DNA of 64,000 nucleotides from an uncultured Ruminococcus sp. (GTDB lineage Bacteria > Bacillota > Clostridia > Oscillospirales > Ruminococcaceae): NCBI GenBank assembly GCA_902787825.1, contig CADAHS010000007.1:1-64000 (forward strand). Reading direction: 5' to 3'. This document shows positions 51,897 through 58,005 of the stretch, one piece after another. Position numbers and translations under genes: made by a program. The notes beneath the pieces are model-generated. The model worked only from the letters and a program-made list of their open reading frames with translations. It was not told where the DNA came from and searched no databases. The number at the start of each line of letters is the position of its first letter. The first letter of the stretch is position 1.

Positions 51897-53075
51897 TCAC
51901 GCAGCCTTCTTTGTGGTCGCCCCTGCCTTAGGCTTTGTCGTCGCCGCCGCAGCCTGAGCCTTTGTCGTGGCTGTCGTCACCGTCACCGCATCAGGTATCT
52001 TCGCCTTGCTTCCCGGCAGGTACTTTTCATACATCGACATCGTCTCGCTCACCGACTGCTCCGTGCTTGCACACTTCACAAGTATGCATACATATGTATG
52101 ACCCGTATCACTGTCCGAACAGGTCGTTGCAATGCACGAACCTGCCTCATCAGTGAATCCCGTCTTTCCGCCGAGCACCTTTGCCGTGTCGTCACTTGCG
52201 CCGTTACCGTTTTTGTCGATGTAAAATCCGCTGAGCCTTCCGCCGAGCAGACACGCAAGATGTACTCCCTCCGGGTTCTGAGTCGTTCTGGAGGTGGTGT
52301 ATTCAAACGTGTTCATAACATTGCGGCAGGTGACATTGTGGTTAGCGACCTTCATGATGACCGCCAGATCTGCAGCCGTCGTGTAATGGTTCGGGTCGTG
52401 TATGCCCGTGCCGTTCACAAAGTTGGTGTTTTTAAGCCCAAGCTCCTTCGCCCTTGCGTTCATCAGCTTCACAAACGAAGTCTCCGAGCCTGCCACAAGG
52501 TTTTCAAGTCCGATGACCGCATCGGCGCCGCTTGGGAGGATAGCTCCGTAAAGCAGATCCTTTGCGCTGACACTTTCGCCGGCCTTGAATCCCGCCATAG
52601 ATGCGTTCTGCTCAACAGGCTTGGTGAAATCAGCCTCCTTGAAAGTATATGTATCATCATATGATCTCAGATTTTCAGCCGCAACAAGTATCGTCATTAC
52701 CTTAGTCAGCGATGCAGGATATATCCTTTTGTCCATGTTGTGTCCTGCGATCACCTGATCTGTATCAATGTCCGCAAGCAGTGAAGCCACCGCAGTAAAA
52801 CCCTTGATACTGGTCTGCTTTGTGCTTGTATCATTGTGGAAATAAAGATCCATCTGCGTCGTGGTCGTCGGAGTCGTCGCCGAGGTCACTACCGCACCCG
52901 TTTCAGATGAAGCGGTGCTGGTCTGAACGTACTTTTCAGTCTCGTCTATCGAGTTCCTTCCCGCAAGAACCATTACGATAGCAGCCACGCCGATAATGAT
53001 TATCATTATCAGCAGCGCCACCAGCGCAGCATTTCCTTTTTTGTTTGTCCGTTTCAAATCCTTCAGCCCTTTCAT
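51897..53075 (-). CDS. D-alanyl-D-alanine carboxypeptidase (peptidase S11)
   Basis: A 392-aa membrane-anchored penicillin-binding-type peptidase: N-terminal helix (ALVALLIMIIIIGVAAIVMVLA), Thr/Ser linker, then the catalytic domain with SxxK in YPASLTKVMT and KTG in GGKTGFTDEAG. The second motif reads PSGADA (SGA rather than SGN), a substitution worth noting though I believe it occurs in related proteins. The C terminus is an Ala/Thr/Lys-rich tail. No PBP5-like C-terminal anchor is present. Confidence 0.92.
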   Translation of the reverse strand: MKGLKDLKRTNKKGNAALVALLIMIIIIGVAAIVMVLAGRNSIDETEKYVQTSTASSETGAVVTSATTPTTTTQMDLYFHNDTSTKQTSIKGFTAVASLLADIDTDQVIAGHNMDKRIYPASLTKVMTILVAAENLRSYDDTYTFKEADFTKPVEQNASMAGFKAGESVSAKDLLYGAILPSGADAVIGLENLVAGSETSFVKLMNARAKELGLKNTNFVNGTGIHDPNHYTTAADLAVIMKVANHNVTCRNVMNTFEYTTSRTTQNPEGVHLACLLGGRLSGFYIDKNGNGASDDTAKVLGGKTGFTDEAGSCIATTCSDSDTGHTYVCILVKCASTEQSVSETMSMYEKYLPGSKAKIPDAVTVTTATTKAQAAAATTKPKAGATTKKAA

Positions 53076-53096
53076 TTTCCTGCCGTGAGCAAGACC

Positions 53097-53546
53097 TTAC
53101 TGCCGTGCCTGAAGCTCACTGTTGTTATCGTTATCCTTGTGGTCGATTCTTCCATGACAGTATTTAAGAACATCACTTCTTGTGATGATGCCGATAAACA
53201 TATTCCTGTCGTCAATTACCGGCACAAAGTTCTGATTCATAAGCATCAGCAGCACATCGTCGATAGAAGATGTCACCGAAACAGGCTTGACCTCAACATT
53301 ACGCTTTATCTTCACATCTTTTATGCTGTACTGCTCAAGCTCCTTTTTTCCGCAAAGCTCCTTGTTTATCATAAACCATAAAAGGTCGCCCTCTGCAAGC
53401 GTCCTTACATACTCACCCTCGTGATTGATAACAGGCACCGCCGTAAATCCGTGGTTTCCCATTATCTCCAAAGCCTGCCTGCAAGTCGAGTCATCATAAA
53501 CAAAGTCTATCAGAGCCTTGGGGTGTAAAAGCTGGATAATATTCAT
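53097..53546 (-). CDS. CBS-domain pair protein
   Basis: A 149-aa protein made of two CBS motifs (ALEIMGNHGFTAVPVINHEGEYV and VLLMLMNQNFVPVIDDRNMFIGIITRSDVLKY), the usual adenine-nucleotide-binding Bateman module, without another domain. Its ligand and partner are unknown. It has no overlap with neighbours (21 bp after it the DD-carboxypeptidase gene begins). Confidence 0.9.
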   Translation of the reverse strand: MNIIQLLHPKALIDFVYDDSTCRQALEIMGNHGFTAVPVINHEGEYVRTLAEGDLLWFMINKELCGKKELEQYSIKDVKIKRNVEVKPVSVTSSIDDVLLMLMNQNFVPVIDDRNMFIGIITRSDVLKYCHGRIDHKDNDNNSELQARQ

Positions 53547-53583
53547 ATACTCTACCCTTTAGTTCTTTTTTAGTTTTCAGTCG

Positions 53584-54630
53584 TTATGCCTTTGAGCTGT
53601 CCTCAGCCTTTGAACTTTCCTCCGTCTTGGAGCTTTCCTCCGTCTTGGAGCTGTCCTCAGCCTTTGAACTTTCCTCCGCCTTGGAGCTTTCCTCAGCCTT
53701 TGAGCTGTCATCGTCCGCCGGCTTTACCTTAGCGTTTGTAATGACCAGCTCTGCAAGCTCGGGATAGGTTATCTTTTTAAAATCGTAAGCATTGATACCC
53801 GAAGCAAAGTATTCCTCCTCCGAGATGTCATGTTCGCTTATAAGCTTTTTGCAAAGCCCCTCACGCTGCATCTCGTTGAGCGAAGCAAGATCAGTGTATT
53901 CGGTCTTTATCTGCTGGGCAGCAACACCTATAACTTTAGCACCTCCGGCCGACATCTTCAGCACCTCACGCTGCTGCACCTCGTTGTCCCTGCCCTCAAC
54001 AGAGTATGTCGCAGTGTAGTTTTTCAGCTCACCGCTTGCCTTGTCAAAGCAAAAGTCCATTACTGTAATATATGTCGGTCCGGTGTAGGTGTATTCCTCA
54101 ACAGCGTATTTCTGAGTGTCCGCATCACTGATGTGCGTCTTAGTCGGTGAGAGCTTCTTTCTGACCGTCTCCGTGATAAGGTTTCCCGAAGGCTCTGTCG
54201 TAACCTTGCCCTCCTGCTTCATGTAGGTCTTGGTAAAAGTGTCAAAGCTGTAAGTATCCTTGCCGTCACAGTAAACATAAGCCGTTCCGCCGCTGTACTG
54301 CGTGGTCTGCAAAAACTTGCTGCCCTCTTTTACAATAGTGATAGTTCCCTGCATTCCGTCGCCCGTCACCTTGCAGACATACTCATAATTTGTGTTTTCA
54401 AAGAATGCAGCTGCCTTTTTTATCCCCTCGCCTTGCTCAACGACCTTTGGCTGCGAGCTTTCATCCGCCGAGGAGTCCTGTGCATCTGAGCTGAGGTCAG
54501 AAACCGTCGAAGACTCAGCCACAGACGATGTGTCATCTTCCTGTGATGAGCTGCCGCTTTTAGAACAGCCCGTGACAAGCATAGCCGACACTGCTGCAAG
54601 TATTATAAGTACCTTTTTTATATTATTCAT
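53584..54630 (-). CDS. Lipoprotein with LolA-like body and acidic repeat tail
   Basis: A 348-aa exported lipoprotein: lipobox VTGC (Cys22), a Ser/Asp-rich linker, a central beta-rich domain (YVCKVTGDGMQGTITIVKEGSKFLQTTQYSGGTAYVYCDGKDTYSF) reminiscent of LolA-type folds, and a C-terminal tail of six to seven SSKAEE/SSKTEE hexapeptides. I start at ATG 54630, which puts the signal peptide at the N terminus; ATG 54651 is possible. Function unknown. Confidence 0.8.
   Translation of the reverse strand: MNNIKKVLIILAAVSAMLVTGCSKSGSSSQEDDTSSVAESSTVSDLSSDAQDSSADESSQPKVVEQGEGIKKAAAFFENTNYEYVCKVTGDGMQGTITIVKEGSKFLQTTQYSGGTAYVYCDGKDTYSFDTFTKTYMKQEGKVTTEPSGNLITETVRKKLSPTKTHISDADTQKYAVEEYTYTGPTYITVMDFCFDKASGELKNYTATYSVEGRDNEVQQREVLKMSAGGAKVIGVAAQQIKTEYTDLASLNEMQREGLCKKLISEHDISEEEYFASGINAYDFKKITYPELAELVITNAKVKPADDDSSKAEESSKAEESSKAEDSSKTEESSKTEESSKAEDSSKA
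53588..53710. repeat. 18-bp tandem repeat encoding SSKAEE/SSKTEE
   Basis: About seven near-identical 18-bp units (CCTTTGAGCTTTCCTCAG type) at the 3' end of the lipoprotein gene. In-frame unit gain or loss would only change tail length. Confidence 0.85.
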
Positions 54631-54698
54631 TATTATCTCTTTTCTTCTCATCTGTCAGACAATATCTGTCCCTTGTCCGAAAAATCACATACTATAAT

Positions 54699-54727
54699 AG
54701 TATACACCAATCCCACGTTATTGTCAA
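54699..54727 (-). promoter_or_regulatory. Promoter of the lipoprotein gene
   Basis: Minus-strand TTGACA (54722-54727), 17-bp spacer, TATACT (54699-54704). Confidence 0.75.
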
Positions 54728-54786
54728 GCATTATAAGGCGATCTGCGTTTTCCCTCATTTTTTGGTCTTACAGCTTTCACCGTCCT

Positions 54787-54832
54787 TGTAGCTTAGGCTA
54801 CACCTGCCCAGAACAGTGTAGTTTATGCTACA
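54787..54832. promoter_or_regulatory. Two 16-bp dyads upstream of the mini-ORF transcript
   Basis: TGTAGCTTAGGCTACA (54787-54802) and TGTAGTTTATGCTACA (54817-54832) lie exactly 30 bp apart, about three helical turns, and the second ends 20 bp before the -35 at 54853. This is the placement of a dimeric activator or a pair of cooperative sites. The binding protein is unknown. Confidence 0.7.
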
Positions 54833-54852
54833 TACCGCCTTGAATTTATCTA

Positions 54853-54881
54853 TTGAAAAAGCCGTAAAAGCGTGGTATCAT
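54853..54881 (+). promoter_or_regulatory. Promoter of the twin mini-ORF transcript
   Basis: TTGAAA (54853-54858), 17-bp spacer, TATCAT (54876-54881). Followed by a leader of about 70 nt made almost wholly of A and C, which would be unstructured and favour initiation. Confidence 0.7.
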
Positions 54882-54978
54882 ACATACAGAACAAGAGAGA
54901 AGGACAGACAAAAAAACAAAAAACAAAACACAAAAAACACACAACAGAATAAACAAAAACAGAAAGGAGTAATCAATA

Positions 54979-55038
54979 ATGCACTCGCCCTTCTTTATTA
55001 ATAAGTTCCAGGGATTTGTCTTTTGCAGACACAAGTAA
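54979..55038 (+). CDS. Mini-ORF 1, 19-aa peptide
   Basis: ATG 54979 with AAAGGAG nine bases upstream (54963-54969). The peptide is MHSPFFINKFQGFVFCRHK, short, aromatic and basic at its end. It aligns without gaps with mini-ORF 2, and the two units (Shine-Dalgarno plus frame) are 112 bp apart, a tandem duplication. Not recognised as any known toxin, pheromone or resistance leader. Confidence 0.6.
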   Translation: MHSPFFINKFQGFVFCRHK

Positions 55039-55090
55039 CGATCCAAAACCCCAATAATTATAATAATCTAACAGAAAGGAGAAATCACAA

Positions 55091-55150
55091 ATTAACACAT
55101 TCCTCTGCGTTGACAAGATCCGAGGATCTGTCTTTCGCAGAAGAAGATGA
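55091..55150 (+). CDS. Mini-ORF 2, 19-aa homologue with ATT start
   Basis: AAAGGAG (55075-55081) is followed after the same 9 bases by ATT, then 18 codons and TGA. Read from ATT it gives (M)NTFLCVDKIRGSVFRRRR, matching mini-ORF 1 in length and at K9, G12, V14, F15 and R17 with mostly similar residues elsewhere. No ATG, GTG or TTG is available in frame. ATT is the rare start used in infC, so initiation may be weak or IF3-sensitive, or the start has decayed. Confidence 0.5.
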   Translation: MNTFLCVDKIRGSVFRRRR

Positions 55151-55153
55151 TCT

Positions 55154-55228
55154 CATAATATATCCCCGATCCATAATAATATCCCCGATCCATAATAATT
55201 CCCAACCCATAATAATATTCCCCCAAAA
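55154..55228. repeat. Four 17-19 bp tandem repeats
   Basis: Units of the form CATAATAATATCCCCGATC: two nearly exact (55154-55190), then CATAATAATTCCCAACC and CATAATAATATTCCCCC. They lie in the 3' part of the mini-ORF transcript and carry no frame. Confidence 0.7.
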
Positions 55229-55272
55229 AATACACACCCCCCAAAAAATCATACACATTACCCACTATCTCG

Positions 55273-55310
55273 AGCGGACGCTGAATCAATCAGCGGACGC
55301 TTTTTCTTTT
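55273..55310 (+). terminator. Terminator of the mini-ORF transcript
   Basis: AGCG-GA-CGCTGA (55273-55284) pairs with TCAGCG-GA-CGCT (55290-55301); the two GA steps form a tandem G-A internal loop. A T-rich tail follows. It separates the mini-ORFs from padR, which has its own promoter. Confidence 0.8.
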
Positions 55311-55439
55311 TATTCACCTTCCTGACCGCTCAGAAAGCCTGTGCGCCCCTCTGCTTTGTGCAAAACCGGCAATACGGCAGGAATTTTCACCTTACAAGTT
55401 GTGCAGTCATACAATAATGAGAAAAAATATAATATCCTC

Positions 55440-55469
55440 TTGACAAATAATATTATATGACGTATAATA
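55440..55469 (+). promoter_or_regulatory. padR operon promoter with overlapping dyad operator
   Basis: TTGACA (55440-55445), 17-bp spacer, TATAAT (55463-55468). TATTATA-TGACG-TATAATA (55451-55469) is an inverted repeat that includes the -10, a placement suited to PadR autorepression. A leader of about 180 nt precedes the gene. Confidence 0.8.
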
Positions 55470-55655
55470 TACACAGTGATAGAGTATTACAGAGAAAAAA
55501 ATATCTTACAAAGAAAAATATCACATAAAGAGAAATATTGTAGAGCGAAAGAAAACAGACAACAAACAAAGCAGTGTTCAGATGCCGCAGGCAGCAGTGC
55601 TTCAGCTGCGAGGCCTGCGGACCGACGAACACTATATCGAAAGGAGCTAAAAATA

Positions 55656-56024
55656 ATGAGCTTTCCTATCAGCGCAGGACTTCTCGATTCAATGGTGCTT
55701 GCCGTAGTCAGCAGCGAGGACACCTACGGATACGAGATAACACAAACGATGCGAAAGGCTGTGGATGTTTCCGAGTCCACGCTTTACCCCGTCCTCAAGC
55801 GGCTCCAGAAAAGCCAGATGCTTGAAACCTATGACAAGGAGTATATGGGGCGCAACAGACGATACTACCATGTAACTCCAAAGGGTGCAGCACAGCTCAG
55901 CAACTACCGCAGCGAGTGGCTCGAACACAAAAACAAAGTTGACAGTATACTGATGAATGACAGCATCAGTAAAGAAAATAAAGAAATAAAAGAAGAGGAG
56001 GAAGTGCTTCCGCAGGAAGCATAG
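55656..56024 (+). CDS. PadR family transcriptional regulator
   Basis: A 122-aa winged-helix repressor: MVLAVVSSEDTYGYEITQTMRKAVDVSESTLYPVLKRLQKSQMLETYDKEYMGRNRRYYHVTPKGAAQL is a textbook PadR N-terminal domain, followed by a short dimerisation helix and an acidic tail. ATG 55656 follows AAAGGAG; the longer frame to 55476 begins at the promoter. It heads the envelope-stress operon (DUF1700, DUF4097, micropeptide, PspC). Confidence 0.94.
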   Translation: MSFPISAGLLDSMVLAVVSSEDTYGYEITQTMRKAVDVSESTLYPVLKRLQKSQMLETYDKEYMGRNRRYYHVTPKGAAQLSNYRSEWLEHKNKVDSILMNDSISKENKEIKEEEEVLPQEA

Positions 56025-56032
56025 TGGGGACT

Positions 56033-56701
56033 ATGAGAAGATTAGAGTACATGAGCATACTCAGGCAGAAGCTTGTAGAAGGCGGTCTGAGCAGCGAAGA
56101 AACAAACGACGCTCTGGAGTTTTATGAGGAGCTTTTCCTCGACGGCGGCTACGAGAACGAGGAAAAAACCGCTCAGAATCTGGGCGATCCCGAAACGCTG
56201 GCTAAGCAGATACTTGCCGAGAACGGTGCGGTCGGCTTTGTAAGACCCGACTATAAAATGGACGATGTTATCGACCCTACAAGACCCGGAACATCACAGG
56301 CTCAGCCTGCTCGTGATTACGACATCGCTCCCGATAACAGGAAAAAAGCGCTGCTGATACTTGTCATCTGTACATCATTTGTCTGGGTACCGCTTGGTAT
56401 CGGACTTCTCACAGGTGCATTCGGCATCGCAATAGGCATCTCAGCAGCATTGTTCAGCATCGGCTGTGTCGGCATAGGGCTGCTCGTCAGCGGAGCTATA
56501 ACACTTTTCCAGGCACCGCCCGTAGGTATCCTGCTGATAGGCACAGGGCTTTTCCTCATCGGACTCGGCGTTCTGGTGTTTATGCCGTTTTGCAAGTTCG
56601 CTGTCGGACTTTTCAAAAAGTTCTTCAGCTGGCTGGTCAGATCTCTCAAAAAGCTTTTCAACAATGCATCTTCACAGAAGGCGGTGAGCGACAATGGCTA
56701 A
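56033..56701 (+). CDS. DUF1700 (HAAS) domain membrane protein
   Basis: A 222-aa protein with the N-terminal HAAS signature (YMSILRQKLVEGGLSSEETNDALEFYEELFLDGGYENEEKTAQNLGDPETLAKQILAE, residues 6-65) and a C-terminal polytopic part with four hydrophobic segments. Such proteins almost always follow PadR and are thought to act with it and the DUF4097 protein in the envelope. ATG 56033 has GTGGGGA upstream; it starts 8 bp after padR and overlaps the next gene by 8. Confidence 0.92.
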   Translation: MRRLEYMSILRQKLVEGGLSSEETNDALEFYEELFLDGGYENEEKTAQNLGDPETLAKQILAENGAVGFVRPDYKMDDVIDPTRPGTSQAQPARDYDIAPDNRKKALLILVICTSFVWVPLGIGLLTGAFGIAIGISAALFSIGCVGIGLLVSGAITLFQAPPVGILLIGTGLFLIGLGVLVFMPFCKFAVGLFKKFFSWLVRSLKKLFNNASSQKAVSDNG

Positions 56702-57587
56702 ATACGACGCAATGGGTGACAGAGTAAAAAGCCGTGTTCCCGTGGCACTGTGGATAATGCTGCTTGGCATTGTTGTAGGCACAGTCGGCTTTATCTGGTG
56801 TATGAATACCGACCTTAAAAAGTACACCAAGACCGAGAACCTCTATGCCGATCAGGACACGACCGATATCAAAAACCTTGATTTTGAGTTTGACAGCGCA
56901 AACGTGACCATCTCGCCTTCAACCGATAAGCAGATACACGTTTCCATCGAAGACGCACCCGAGGGAGTCTACACCTTCGGCGAGAAGGACGGCACCTTCT
57001 ACATCCATAAAAAGAAGATGCTGAGCATTCTCAAATGGTCGGGCATTTCCAAAATACCTTTCCTCAAAGATGTCTACCCCGAGGCAAAGATCAATGTGCA
57101 GATACCGGAGGGAATGAAATTTGACAGCGTGAATATAGAATGTTCCGTCAGTGAGGCTGCTGTCAAGGGGATAACCTGTGAGAAACTGACGATAGAAAAC
57201 GGAATGGGAACGATCAAGCTCCTTGACTGCAAGGCAGAGAAAACCGATATCGACAACGGTATGGGAAAGGTCGAAGCAACCGATTCCACTCTCGGAAAGA
57301 CCGATATCGACAACGGAATGGGCTTAGTAAAGCTGACCGACTGCGAGCTTGACGAAACCGATGTTGACAACGGCATGGGTAAAATAAATATAACAGCCGA
57401 CATCAAGGGAGATATCGACATAGATAACGGCATGGGCAATGTCGATCTGCGGATCAACGGTGACGGCGAGGACTACCGTGTCACCGGCGATGATGCGGAC
57501 GTAAAGGGCAGATCAGGCTCAAGGGACGCTAAATATAAGATCTCCGTAGACAACGGAATGGGCGATGTAGATATCATATTTGACTGA
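56694..57587 (+). CDS. DUF4097 beta-helix protein with NGMG repeats
   Basis: A 297-aa protein with one N-terminal membrane helix (LWIMLLGIVVGTVGFIWCM) and a DUF4097/bactofilin-like adhesin fold. Six copies of a roughly 20-residue rung share the motif (D/E)NGMG, four of them as DIDNGMG/DVDNGMG between about residues 165 and 245, with a seventh partial near the end. The repetition suggests a right-handed solenoid on the outer face. Overlaps the DUF1700 gene by 8 bases. Confidence 0.9.
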   Translation: MAKYDAMGDRVKSRVPVALWIMLLGIVVGTVGFIWCMNTDLKKYTKTENLYADQDTTDIKNLDFEFDSANVTISPSTDKQIHVSIEDAPEGVYTFGEKDGTFYIHKKKMLSILKWSGISKIPFLKDVYPEAKINVQIPEGMKFDSVNIECSVSEAAVKGITCEKLTIENGMGTIKLLDCKAEKTDIDNGMGKVEATDSTLGKTDIDNGMGLVKLTDCELDETDVDNGMGKINITADIKGDIDIDNGMGNVDLRINGDGEDYRVTGDDADVKGRSGSRDAKYKISVDNGMGDVDIIFD

Positions 57588-57642
57588 ACAAAAGAAAAAC
57601 AGAAATAATAAAATTATAAAGACAGACAGCAAGGAGCACAAA

Positions 57643-57708
57643 ATGATACTTTCCGCGATCCCGGTCCTGCTCATTCTCGGCGCCTGCCTTATGAGCGATC
57701 AGGACTGA
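57643..57708 (+). CDS. 21-aa hydrophobic micropeptide in the padR operon
   Basis: ATG 57643 is preceded by AAGGAG at 7-base spacing. The peptide begins MILSAIPVLLILGACLMS and ends SDQD, that is, a single membrane-spanning segment with an acidic end. It lies between the DUF4097 and pspC genes, on the same strand and without an intervening terminator. A tiny regulator or partner of the membrane proteins is plausible; no family known to me. Confidence 0.55.
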   Translation: MILSAIPVLLILGACLMSDQD

Positions 57709-57766
57709 ACCACAAAGAACAAAAGACAATTATCAACAACGATGATCTGCTAAGGAGGAAACAGAG

Positions 57767-57955
57767 ATGGAAGAAAGGAAACGACTTTTTAAAGCAAAAC
57801 ACAACCGCATCTTTTTCGGAGTCTGCGGCGGCATAGGCGAGTATCTCAACGTAGATGCAAACGCCGTCAGGATCGCAGCTGTACTGCTTGCCTGCACAGG
57901 CACCGGTCTGCTTGCGTATATCATCGCAGCGATCCTGCTCCCCGAAAAACCGTGA
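57767..57955 (+). CDS. PspC domain protein
   Basis: A 62-aa single PspC module: LFKAKHNRIFFGVCGGIGEYLNVDANAVRIAAVLLACTGTGLLAYIIAAILLPEKP, with an N-terminal amphipathic part and one membrane segment. ATG 57767 follows AAGGAGG. Last gene of the PadR operon, just before a strong terminator. It fits a phage-shock-like envelope-stress role. Confidence 0.93.
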   Translation: MEERKRLFKAKHNRIFFGVCGGIGEYLNVDANAVRIAAVLLACTGTGLLAYIIAAILLPEKP

Positions 57956-58005
57956 GCGATCAACGGTCTGGTCATCAATGCATTCATCTGACCCCACTAT
58001 ATAAA

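What the first reader, a model, noticed from the sequence alone, without database searches (positions are those of the whole stretch)
54787..55310. Stand-alone transcript with two homologous 19-residue mini-ORFs, one with an ATT start
Seen: promoter (54853-54881) behind two 16-bp dyads spaced exactly 30 bp; a G/T-poor A/C leader; AAAGGAG then, nine bases on, mini-ORF 1 (ATG 54979); 112 bp later the same layout with mini-ORF 2 starting at ATT 55091. Both are 19 codons plus stop and align without gaps (K9, G12, V14, F15, R17 identical). Tandem 17-19 bp repeats and a terminator with tandem G-A pairs end the unit. Equal frame length after divergence implies the peptides, not just the RNA, were under selection. 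Inference: a regulated micropeptide locus (signal, stress peptide or sensor of initiation), possibly related to the padR operon downstream.
Basis: partly seen in the sequence, partly recalled or inferred. Interest (0 to 1): 0.85.

Follow-up and report, generated by a model that had tools for sequence, protein, structure and literature searches.

The report
One promoter cassette, many tiny outputs
The spot is one of about ten near-identical switchable promoters in a Ruminococcus genome; it probably makes a short RNA with one plausible 19-residue micropeptide and a C-rich tail that may act as a small regulatory RNA, while the second, ATT-started mini-gene is probably a worn duplicate.

Summary
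The described features are all in the sequence, but the reading changes. The two dyads plus promoter form a rigid 113-bp cassette with at least ten copies in this genome; 90 distinct copies from ten genomes were examined. The dyads are TGTAG-N6-CTACA (GTA-N8-TAC), centred near -63.5 and -93.5, as for a Crp/FNR/NtcA-type activator. A Crp/FNR gene with conserved cysteines has a distantly similar promoter. Outputs include short peptides, often in tandem, secreted proteins, and a few units with no usable ORF but C-rich tails and terminators. The window unit resembles both kinds: leader and tail are kept in Ruminococcus sp. FC2018, which has one ATG-started 19-codon ORF and lacks the ATT copy. The two window ORFs show no clear purifying selection, and another frame is more alike. 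In two relatives with the unit upstream of padR, an SD stays but no ATG lies in its reach. Best reading: a Crp/FNR-controlled small RNA, perhaps dual-function; ORF1 plausibly translated, ORF2 probably not. PadR looks like a bystander. A peptide-only reading remains a close rival.

The parts
54787..54802 (+). Dyad 1, TGTAGCTTAGGCTACA (GTA-N8-TAC), centre about -93.5 from a start predicted at 54888
   Evidence: position 1-16 of the 21-copy alignment A2
54817..54832 (+). Dyad 2, TGTAGTTTATGCTACA, exactly 30 bp after dyad 1, centre about -63.5
   Evidence: 30-bp spacing in 81 of 90 copies
54853..54881 (+). Promoter: -35 TTGAAA, 17 bp, extended -10 TG-G-TATCAT; predicted start about 54888
   Evidence: of 90 copies, -35 begins TTG in 90, spacer 17 in 83, TG extension in 76 (best-fitting pair of hexamers taken)
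54888..54962 (+). A-rich, nearly T-free leader with some C; A-rich and T-poor leaders are common in the regulon
   Evidence: window leader A 0.69, C 0.17, G 0.12, T 0.01; 79 leaders pooled A 0.575, G 0.188, C 0.154, T 0.084, SD included
54963..55038 (+). SD AAAGGAG and mini-ORF 1 (54979-55038, MHSPFFINKFQGFVFCRHK), plausible micropeptide
   Evidence: counterpart MEFFINIWEGFQKFFRGKC in Ruminococcus sp. FC2018, three in-frame indels
55075..55150 (+). SD AAAGGAG and mini-ORF 2 (55091-55150, ATT start), tandem duplicate, probably little or not translated
   Evidence: absent from the FC2018 copy; part of it folds into a hairpin
55151..55273 (+). C-rich, nearly G-free tail (C 0.34, G 0.02) with UCCC/CCCC runs and two exact 19-bp repeats at 55160-55197; candidate sRNA seeds
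   Evidence: four TCCC sites in the unit, unpaired probability 0.76-0.92
55274..55306 (+). Intrinsic terminator with tandem G.A pairs
   Evidence: kept in the FC2018 copy

Best explanation
The locus is one copy of a promoter cassette that defines a regulon found mainly in Ruminococcus, largely from the rumen. Two GTA-N8-TAC dyads 30 bp apart are bound by a Crp/FNR-family activator, which turns on an extended -10 promoter (site type inferred from geometry; binding not shown). The regulator is most likely the 213-residue Crp/FNR protein encoded at G000 contig 26. Its conserved Cys21 and C-x3-C-x2-H suggest an FNR-like metal or Fe-S redox/NO sensor (inferred). The window copy would make a transcript of about 420 nt, mostly unpaired, ending in a C-rich, nearly G-free tail and a terminator. 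I think the RNA is the main product: a C-rich small RNA whose exposed UCCC motifs would pair with Shine-Dalgarno regions, in the manner of RoxS/RsaE and LhrC. ORF1 is probably also translated into a fast-evolving micropeptide, which would make it a dual-function RNA. ORF2 is a tandem duplicate without an ATG. Separate estimates: regulon membership 0.93; Crp/FNR-type activator 0.65; RNA function 0.43; ORF1 translated 0.6; ORF2 usefully translated 0.15.
For: Regulon: (90 distinct copies; 30-bp spacing in 81; dyad 2 to -10 distance of 59 nt in 82). Taxon: one scan of the species-level genome collection gave 23 stretches, 16 titled Ruminococcus. Crp/FNR: TGTAG-N6-CTACA contains the NtcA consensus GTAN8TAC (PMC3898017, start of abstract in the listing); the protein matches cNMP_binding and HTH_Crp_2 above their cut-offs; upstream regions of 11 of 15 of its orthologs match the cassette model at E below 0.01; conserved Cys pattern in 15 orthologs. 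RNA: the units L073+ and L086- keep promoter, SD-like AGGAG, CCTTYTAC, AATTTCCC and terminator in two species without an SD-led ATG ORF. The G027 and G028 units upstream of padR keep SD, C-rich tail and terminator without an ATG in reach of the SD. The window tail is 74-76% identical to the FC2018 tail, against 67% for the ORF. The window RNA has five C runs of 4 or more, the most of 90 units, and its four TCCC sites are mostly unpaired. UCCC as an SD-binding motif of low-GC sRNAs: PMC4132741, passages read. C-rich regions of RoxS, induced by NO through ResD: PMC4409812, passages read.
Against: No expression data. The TCCC count in the window unit is not above dinucleotide shuffles (4 seen, mean 2.6, 119 of 500 reach it); of ten units tested, L068 and L086- (1 of 500 each) and L115 (24 of 500) exceed shuffles, seven do not. 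C runs of 4 or more occur in 30 of 90 units, many of them ordinary genes. No Rfam match near the locus (0 at E up to 1). No target was predicted. The ORF-less pair L073-/L086+ is poorly conserved in its body. Crp presence does not track the sites perfectly: G016 has a 77% identical Crp but one site; G018 and G027 (86% and 70% complete) have many sites but no close Crp found; nine genomes with Crp homologs of 36-44% identity have no site. The Crp gene's own promoter carries TGTTG-N6-CAACA-like dyads, not TGTAG-N6-CTACA, and scores only 6.6 to 21.8 bits; part of that score is the -10 region, which an ordinary gene without dyads also has. Undoubted peptide families of the regulon, and a transporter gene beside two short-peptide units, argue for peptides as products.
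Confidence: 0.4

Rival explanations
1. The peptides are the product. ORF1, and perhaps ORF2 at a low level from ATT, belong to a fast-evolving group of 16-24-residue peptides of this regulon, acting as exported signals, bacteriocin-like or membrane-acting peptides; the RNA is only an mRNA.
For: 33 of 90 units start with an SD-led ATG ORF of 35 residues or fewer; about 27 look convincing by eye, six of the shortest being truncated or incidental (L083, L084, L101, L114, L117-, L134). Tandem arrays are frequent. A 31-residue family has pS 0.75 and pN 0.37. The FC2018 counterpart keeps ATG, SD and frame with indels of 6, 3 and 3 nt. Peptides in G006, G008 and G018 share ARG at or near the end. Two short-peptide units, in G021 (L098) and G027 (L119), lie near the same transporter gene, 83% identical, with MFS_1 and MFS_3 (transmembrane secretion effector) matches. 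GG-leader-like peptides occur in the same regulon in G009 and G019.
Against: No clear purifying selection between the two window ORFs; ORF2 lacks a usual start; sister units at the padR site lack an ATG in reach of the SD but keep the rest. The window peptides are not amphipathic (shuffle p 0.93 and 0.86). Apart from the transporter shared by L098 and L119 and a distant stretch shared by L079 and L119, translated comparison of seven other short-peptide loci and the window surroundings found matches only at the units themselves; two of the seven are cut at a contig end.
Confidence: 0.32
2. The unit is a decaying copy: the promoter still fires but neither RNA nor peptide has a role any more.
For: Units move or are lost (different context in FC2018; not found upstream of padR in 25 of 28 genomes with padR, flanks limited). 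Start codons are missing in several units. ORF2 has an ATT start.
Against: Leader and tail remain 74-76% identical to the FC2018 copy over ungapped columns, with SD and terminator kept, and the promoter is the best match to the model in its genome (it was also in the training set).
Confidence: 0.17
3. The dyads are bound by a different factor (GntR, XRE or other family) and the Crp/FNR gene is unrelated to this regulon. This concerns the regulator only and can hold beside any of the above.
For: Imperfect co-occurrence of Crp and sites; the Crp gene's own dyad is TGTTG-N6-CAACA-like. Only the Crp family was searched for; other regulator families were not.
Against: Geometry is that of Crp-family sites with two phased upstream sites; right half-sites with CAACA-type A at position 13 occur in 22 and 17 of 90 dyads; 11 of 15 Crp gene promoters match the cassette model at E below 0.01.
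Confidence: 0.3

Closest known systems
RoxS / RsaE sRNA of Bacillus and Staphylococcus
   Same: C-rich regions used for pairing; made under control of a redox-linked regulator (ResDE or SrrAB; PMC4409812, passages read)
   Different: No Rfam match at all near the locus; here the activator would be Crp/FNR-type, and the RNA is about 420 nt and carries mini-ORFs
LhrC multicopy sRNAs of Listeria
   Same: Several copies under one regulator and several UCCC motifs per RNA (PMC4132741, passages read)
   Different: LhrC copies are almost identical RNAs; here the copies share the promoter but differ in body, and many encode proteins
NtcA / FNR / CRP regulons
   Same: 16-bp dyad containing GTA-N8-TAC, upstream activator positions, a Crp-family regulator with conserved Cys
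   Different: Two dyads at a fixed 30 bp at about -63.5 and -93.5 instead of one near -41.5 (NtcA, PMC3898017, start of abstract seen); output rich in micropeptides, secreted proteins and possible small RNAs; a strict anaerobe (recalled)
FnrS of Escherichia coli (recalled)
   Same: A small RNA switched on by FNR
   Different: No sequence relation was tested; FnrS has no mini-ORFs as far as recalled
Leaderless multi-peptide bacteriocin operons (recalled)
   Same: Tandem SD-led genes of about 20-35 residues with no leader
   Different: Window peptides are not amphipathic and no immunity gene was recognised beside them (read by eye)

Membership tests
Crp/FNR-family regulon | Palindromic site of the TGTNN-N6-NNACA type | tested here: met
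   TGTAG-N6-CTACA; per-position counts over 90 copies of each dyad
Crp/FNR-family regulon | Site at a fixed activator position relative to the -10 | tested here: met
   dyad 2 start to -10: 59 nt in 82 of 90; geometry read from model-guided matches, so partly built in
Crp/FNR-family regulon | A Crp/FNR regulator in the genomes that have the sites | tested here: inconclusive
   close ortholog (58-100% identity) in 6 of 8 site-rich genomes and in G016 with one site; not found in G018 and G027, both incomplete; nine genomes have a 36-44% homolog and no site
Crp/FNR-family regulon | Autoregulation by a similar promoter | tested here: inconclusive
   upstream regions of the 15 Crp genes of this group score 6.6 to 21.8 bits with the cassette model, 11 of 15 at E below 0.01; an ordinary promoter shares the -10 part
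Crp/FNR-family regulon | Direct binding of the regulator to the dyads | not testable with these tools
   needs footprinting or ChIP
C-rich (UCCC) antisense sRNA | Exposed UCCC motifs in an RNA with its own terminator | tested here: met
   four TCCC sites, predicted unpaired probability 0.76-0.92; but their number is not above shuffles
C-rich (UCCC) antisense sRNA | Match to a described sRNA family | tested here: not met
   0 Rfam matches at E up to 1 in 52000-58000
C-rich (UCCC) antisense sRNA | Conserved noncoding relatives | tested here: inconclusive
   L073+/L086- conserved without SD-led ATG ORF, but L073-/L086+ poorly conserved in the body; relation of these to the window unit is by promoter and style, not by a tested alignment of the tails
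C-rich (UCCC) antisense sRNA | Base pairing with target mRNAs | not tested
PSM-like or amphipathic membrane peptide | Amphipathic helix | tested here: not met
   hydrophobic moment at shuffle level for both window peptides (p 0.93, 0.86); none of eleven peptides tested is below 0.05
Protein-coding mini-ORF pair | Purifying selection on the encoded peptides | tested here: inconclusive
   pS 0.48, pN 0.36; frame +1 more alike than the named frame

The most novel reading that the evidence does not exclude
A lineage of rumen Ruminococcus has spread one Crp/FNR-type tandem-dyad promoter cassette about ten-fold per genome to run a single programme. Its outputs are micropeptides in arrays, secreted proteins and dual-function C-rich small RNAs; the window unit is a transitional form between a micropeptide mRNA and a small regulatory RNA.
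Probability: 0.35. Interest if true: 0.78.

Novelty: new variant of a known kind. Interest (0 to 1): 0.6.

Why it matters
It turns an odd pair of mini-ORFs into an entry to a whole regulon that no tool used here names, with dozens of micropeptides and a few possible small RNAs in a major fibre-degrading rumen genus (role recalled). One carrier is a named strain in the collections (Ruminococcus sp. FC2018). It also offers related units at different stages between coding and noncoding, useful for asking how dual-function RNAs arise. I found no description in print in the searches made, which covered only the open-licence library and few term sets.

Tried and rejected
RRNPP quorum sensing was considered first, because the peptides are short and the dyads look autoinducer-like. 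The one paper search (seven papers listed, none opened) gave no lead on Ruminococcus; the flanks of seven short-peptide units show no shared regulator or kinase by eye, though two share an MFS-type transporter gene. RRNPP genes themselves were not searched for. PadR control was rejected. A phage link was not supported: no phage-record match, and two viral-contig pattern hits, one not promoter-like and one passing only a loose filter. Amphipathic PSM-like peptides were rejected for the window. An alternative frame (+1) was noticed, but copy 1 has no start codon in it, so it is not claimed. A gene in the own genome with a similar -10 and start but no dyads (L312) was set aside: that part of the cassette is also used by ordinary promoters. 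No structure prediction was run.

Limits of the counts: the 90 copies come from 80 loci fetched, chosen from a longer hit list (one search prints only part of it), plus the window, scoring 29 bits or more; three reverse echoes were named for dropping in the scripts (two of them reach the cut-off) and two repeated sequences were removed. 20 of the 21 training copies lie in these loci again and the window copy was counted directly. The 18 loci are not in the 90. Spacing counts use matches guided by the model.

Full report
What is in the window. No tRNA was found in the window and no Rfam family matches 52000-58000 at E up to 1.

The promoter is a multi-copy cassette. A nucleotide search of 29 genomes of the genus matched the promoter half of the unit many times, four times in the own genome including the window itself. 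Twenty-one copies align almost without gaps over 113 bp. A sequence model built from them finds strong forward matches at ten places in the own genome and many in related genomes; the list printed is cut. A separate pattern of the two dyads alone, up to three mismatches, gives 9 in the own genome, 8-12 in each of eight genomes (the own one included), 1-2 in five more and none in sixteen; the reversed control pattern gave one place in the 29. In 90 distinct copies the dyads are 30 bp apart in 81, dyad 2 to -10 is 59 nt in 82 and the -35/-10 spacer is 17 in 83. Titles that give a source name rumen, reticulum, omasum or jejunum of ruminants.

What the cassette drives. Among 90 copies the first SD-led ATG ORF has at most 24 residues in 15, 25-35 in 18, 36-100 in 10, more than 100 in 37, and none is found in 10. 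Of the 15 shortest, six look truncated or incidental by eye, leaving about 27 convincing micropeptide starts. Short peptides often come in arrays. A family of 31 residues in seven genomes and 30 in an eighth keeps its length; over the seven members of 31 residues pooled pS is 0.75 and pN 0.37, so micropeptides of this regulon are real genes. Longer products include secreted proteins with GKHPGESG-type repeats, class-3 lipases, two-span membrane proteins (spans judged by eye) and, in G009 and G019, peptides with double-glycine-like leaders.

Units without a usual ORF. Of the ten units without an SD-led ATG ORF, one has a TTG-started 25-residue ORF (L112), one a longer coding frame without ATG (L062), one a five-codon ATG ORF and a later 34-residue one (L113); seven (L115, L125, L073 twice, L086 twice, L120) have none that I could see. 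The pair L073+ and L086- keeps promoter, leader start, AGGAG, CCTTYTAC, AATTTCCC and terminator between two species. This is what a small noncoding RNA looks like. A search of the genus with this unit found the whole of it only in these two genomes; other matches were mostly the promoter start. The pair L073- and L086+ aligns well in the flanking genes and promoter but poorly in the body, so conservation there is weak.

The window unit compared. Its closest copy is in FC2018, in another gene context. Leader identity is 75%, ORF 67%, tail 74-76% of ungapped columns; FC2018 has one ATG-started 19-codon ORF followed directly by the tail, so the ATT copy looks like a tandem duplicate present in the window and not there. 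Upstream of padR, the unit is found in G027 and G028 too, with SD, C-rich tail and terminator but no ATG in reach of the SD. padR is in 28 of 29 genomes, and only three of 29 padR loci (own genome, G027, G028) show the cassette within the fetched flank, which is 1.5 kb at most and shorter at contig ends.

Peptides or RNA. Between ORF1 and ORF2 the differences by codon position are 9, 6 and 7, pS 0.48 and pN 0.36; read in frame +1 the two copies share 9 of 18 residues, more than the 5 of 19 in the named frame. This neither proves nor excludes coding, but it removes the argument from equal length. In favour of ORF1: ATG, SD and frame are kept in FC2018 with indels of 6, 3 and 3 nt, and two other short-peptide units, in G021 and G027, lie near the same MFS-type transporter gene, 83% identical, in different relative orientation. 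In favour of the RNA: the tail is C 0.34 and G 0.02, the transcript has five C runs, more than any other of the 90 units, and its four TCCC sites are mostly unpaired. Against it: the number of TCCC sites is not above shuffles for the window and for six of the other nine units tested, and C runs occur in 30 of 90 units. The whole transcript folds better than shuffles (z -3.6), largely through the terminator and a hairpin in ORF2 that copy 1 does not share (judged by eye). UCCC motifs of low-GC bacteria bind SD sequences in several sRNAs (PMC4132741, passages), and RoxS has C-rich regions and responds to NO through ResD (PMC4409812, passages).

The regulator. TGTAG-N6-CTACA contains GTA-N8-TAC, the NtcA consensus (PMC3898017, start of abstract in the listing), and the dyad centres lie near -63.5 and -93.5, positions typical of class I Crp activation (recalled). 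A search for the Crp helix-turn-helix led to a gene whose upstream region resembles the cassette. The protein has cNMP_binding and HTH_Crp_2 domains, distant PDB relatives FixK2, Lmo0753, FNR-type regulators and NtcA, an invariant C-x3-C-x2-H in 15 orthologs and an N-terminal Cys in all 13 that are full-length as called. Against it: its own promoter dyad is TGTTG-N6-CAACA-like, its distribution does not match the sites perfectly, and no other regulator family was searched. I hold this assignment at about 0.65.

Verdict. The best reading is a Crp/FNR-controlled small RNA, possibly dual-function, with a peptide-only reading as a close rival.

Noticed in passing
L059 (G000 contig 24), L124, L109, L088, L070, L082, L097, L117: A family of 30-31-residue hydrophobic peptides behind the same cassette, under purifying selection; other short hydrophobic peptides occur in arrays of three or four (L127, L131, L199).
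   Followed up: partly
L109, L066, L085, L060: Secreted proteins with GKHPGE(S/C)G-Y motifs, repeated in three of the four, under the same promoter; no Pfam match for the one tested (L060); they resemble multi-core precursors.
   Followed up: no
L132, L136, L296: Small peptides with double-glycine-like leaders in the regulon of G009 and G019; one has a sub-cut-off match to a bacteriocin family.
   Followed up: no
L063, L067, L089, L106, L127, L129: Small membrane proteins, five of the six ending in YF(V/I)FLRK-like motifs and L129 diverged, in L127 inside a micropeptide array; possible immunity or partner proteins.
   Followed up: no
L098:1361-2641 and L119:4778-6064: An MFS-type transporter gene (MFS_1, MFS_3) beside short-peptide units of two species, 83% identical, while the peptides themselves are unlike; a possible exporter.
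   Followed up: partly
window 54979-55150: Frame +1 of both mini-ORFs shares 9 of 18 residues (DLSFA), more than the named frame; copy 1 has no start codon in it.
   Followed up: partly
L169-L185 (Crp/FNR genes): An invariant C-x3-C-x2-H and an N-terminal Cys21 (all 13 orthologs full-length as called) suggest a metal or Fe-S sensor.
   Followed up: partly
L062 (G000 contig 39): A cassette drives a long coding frame that seems to lack its ATG, like other units with missing starts.
   Followed up: no
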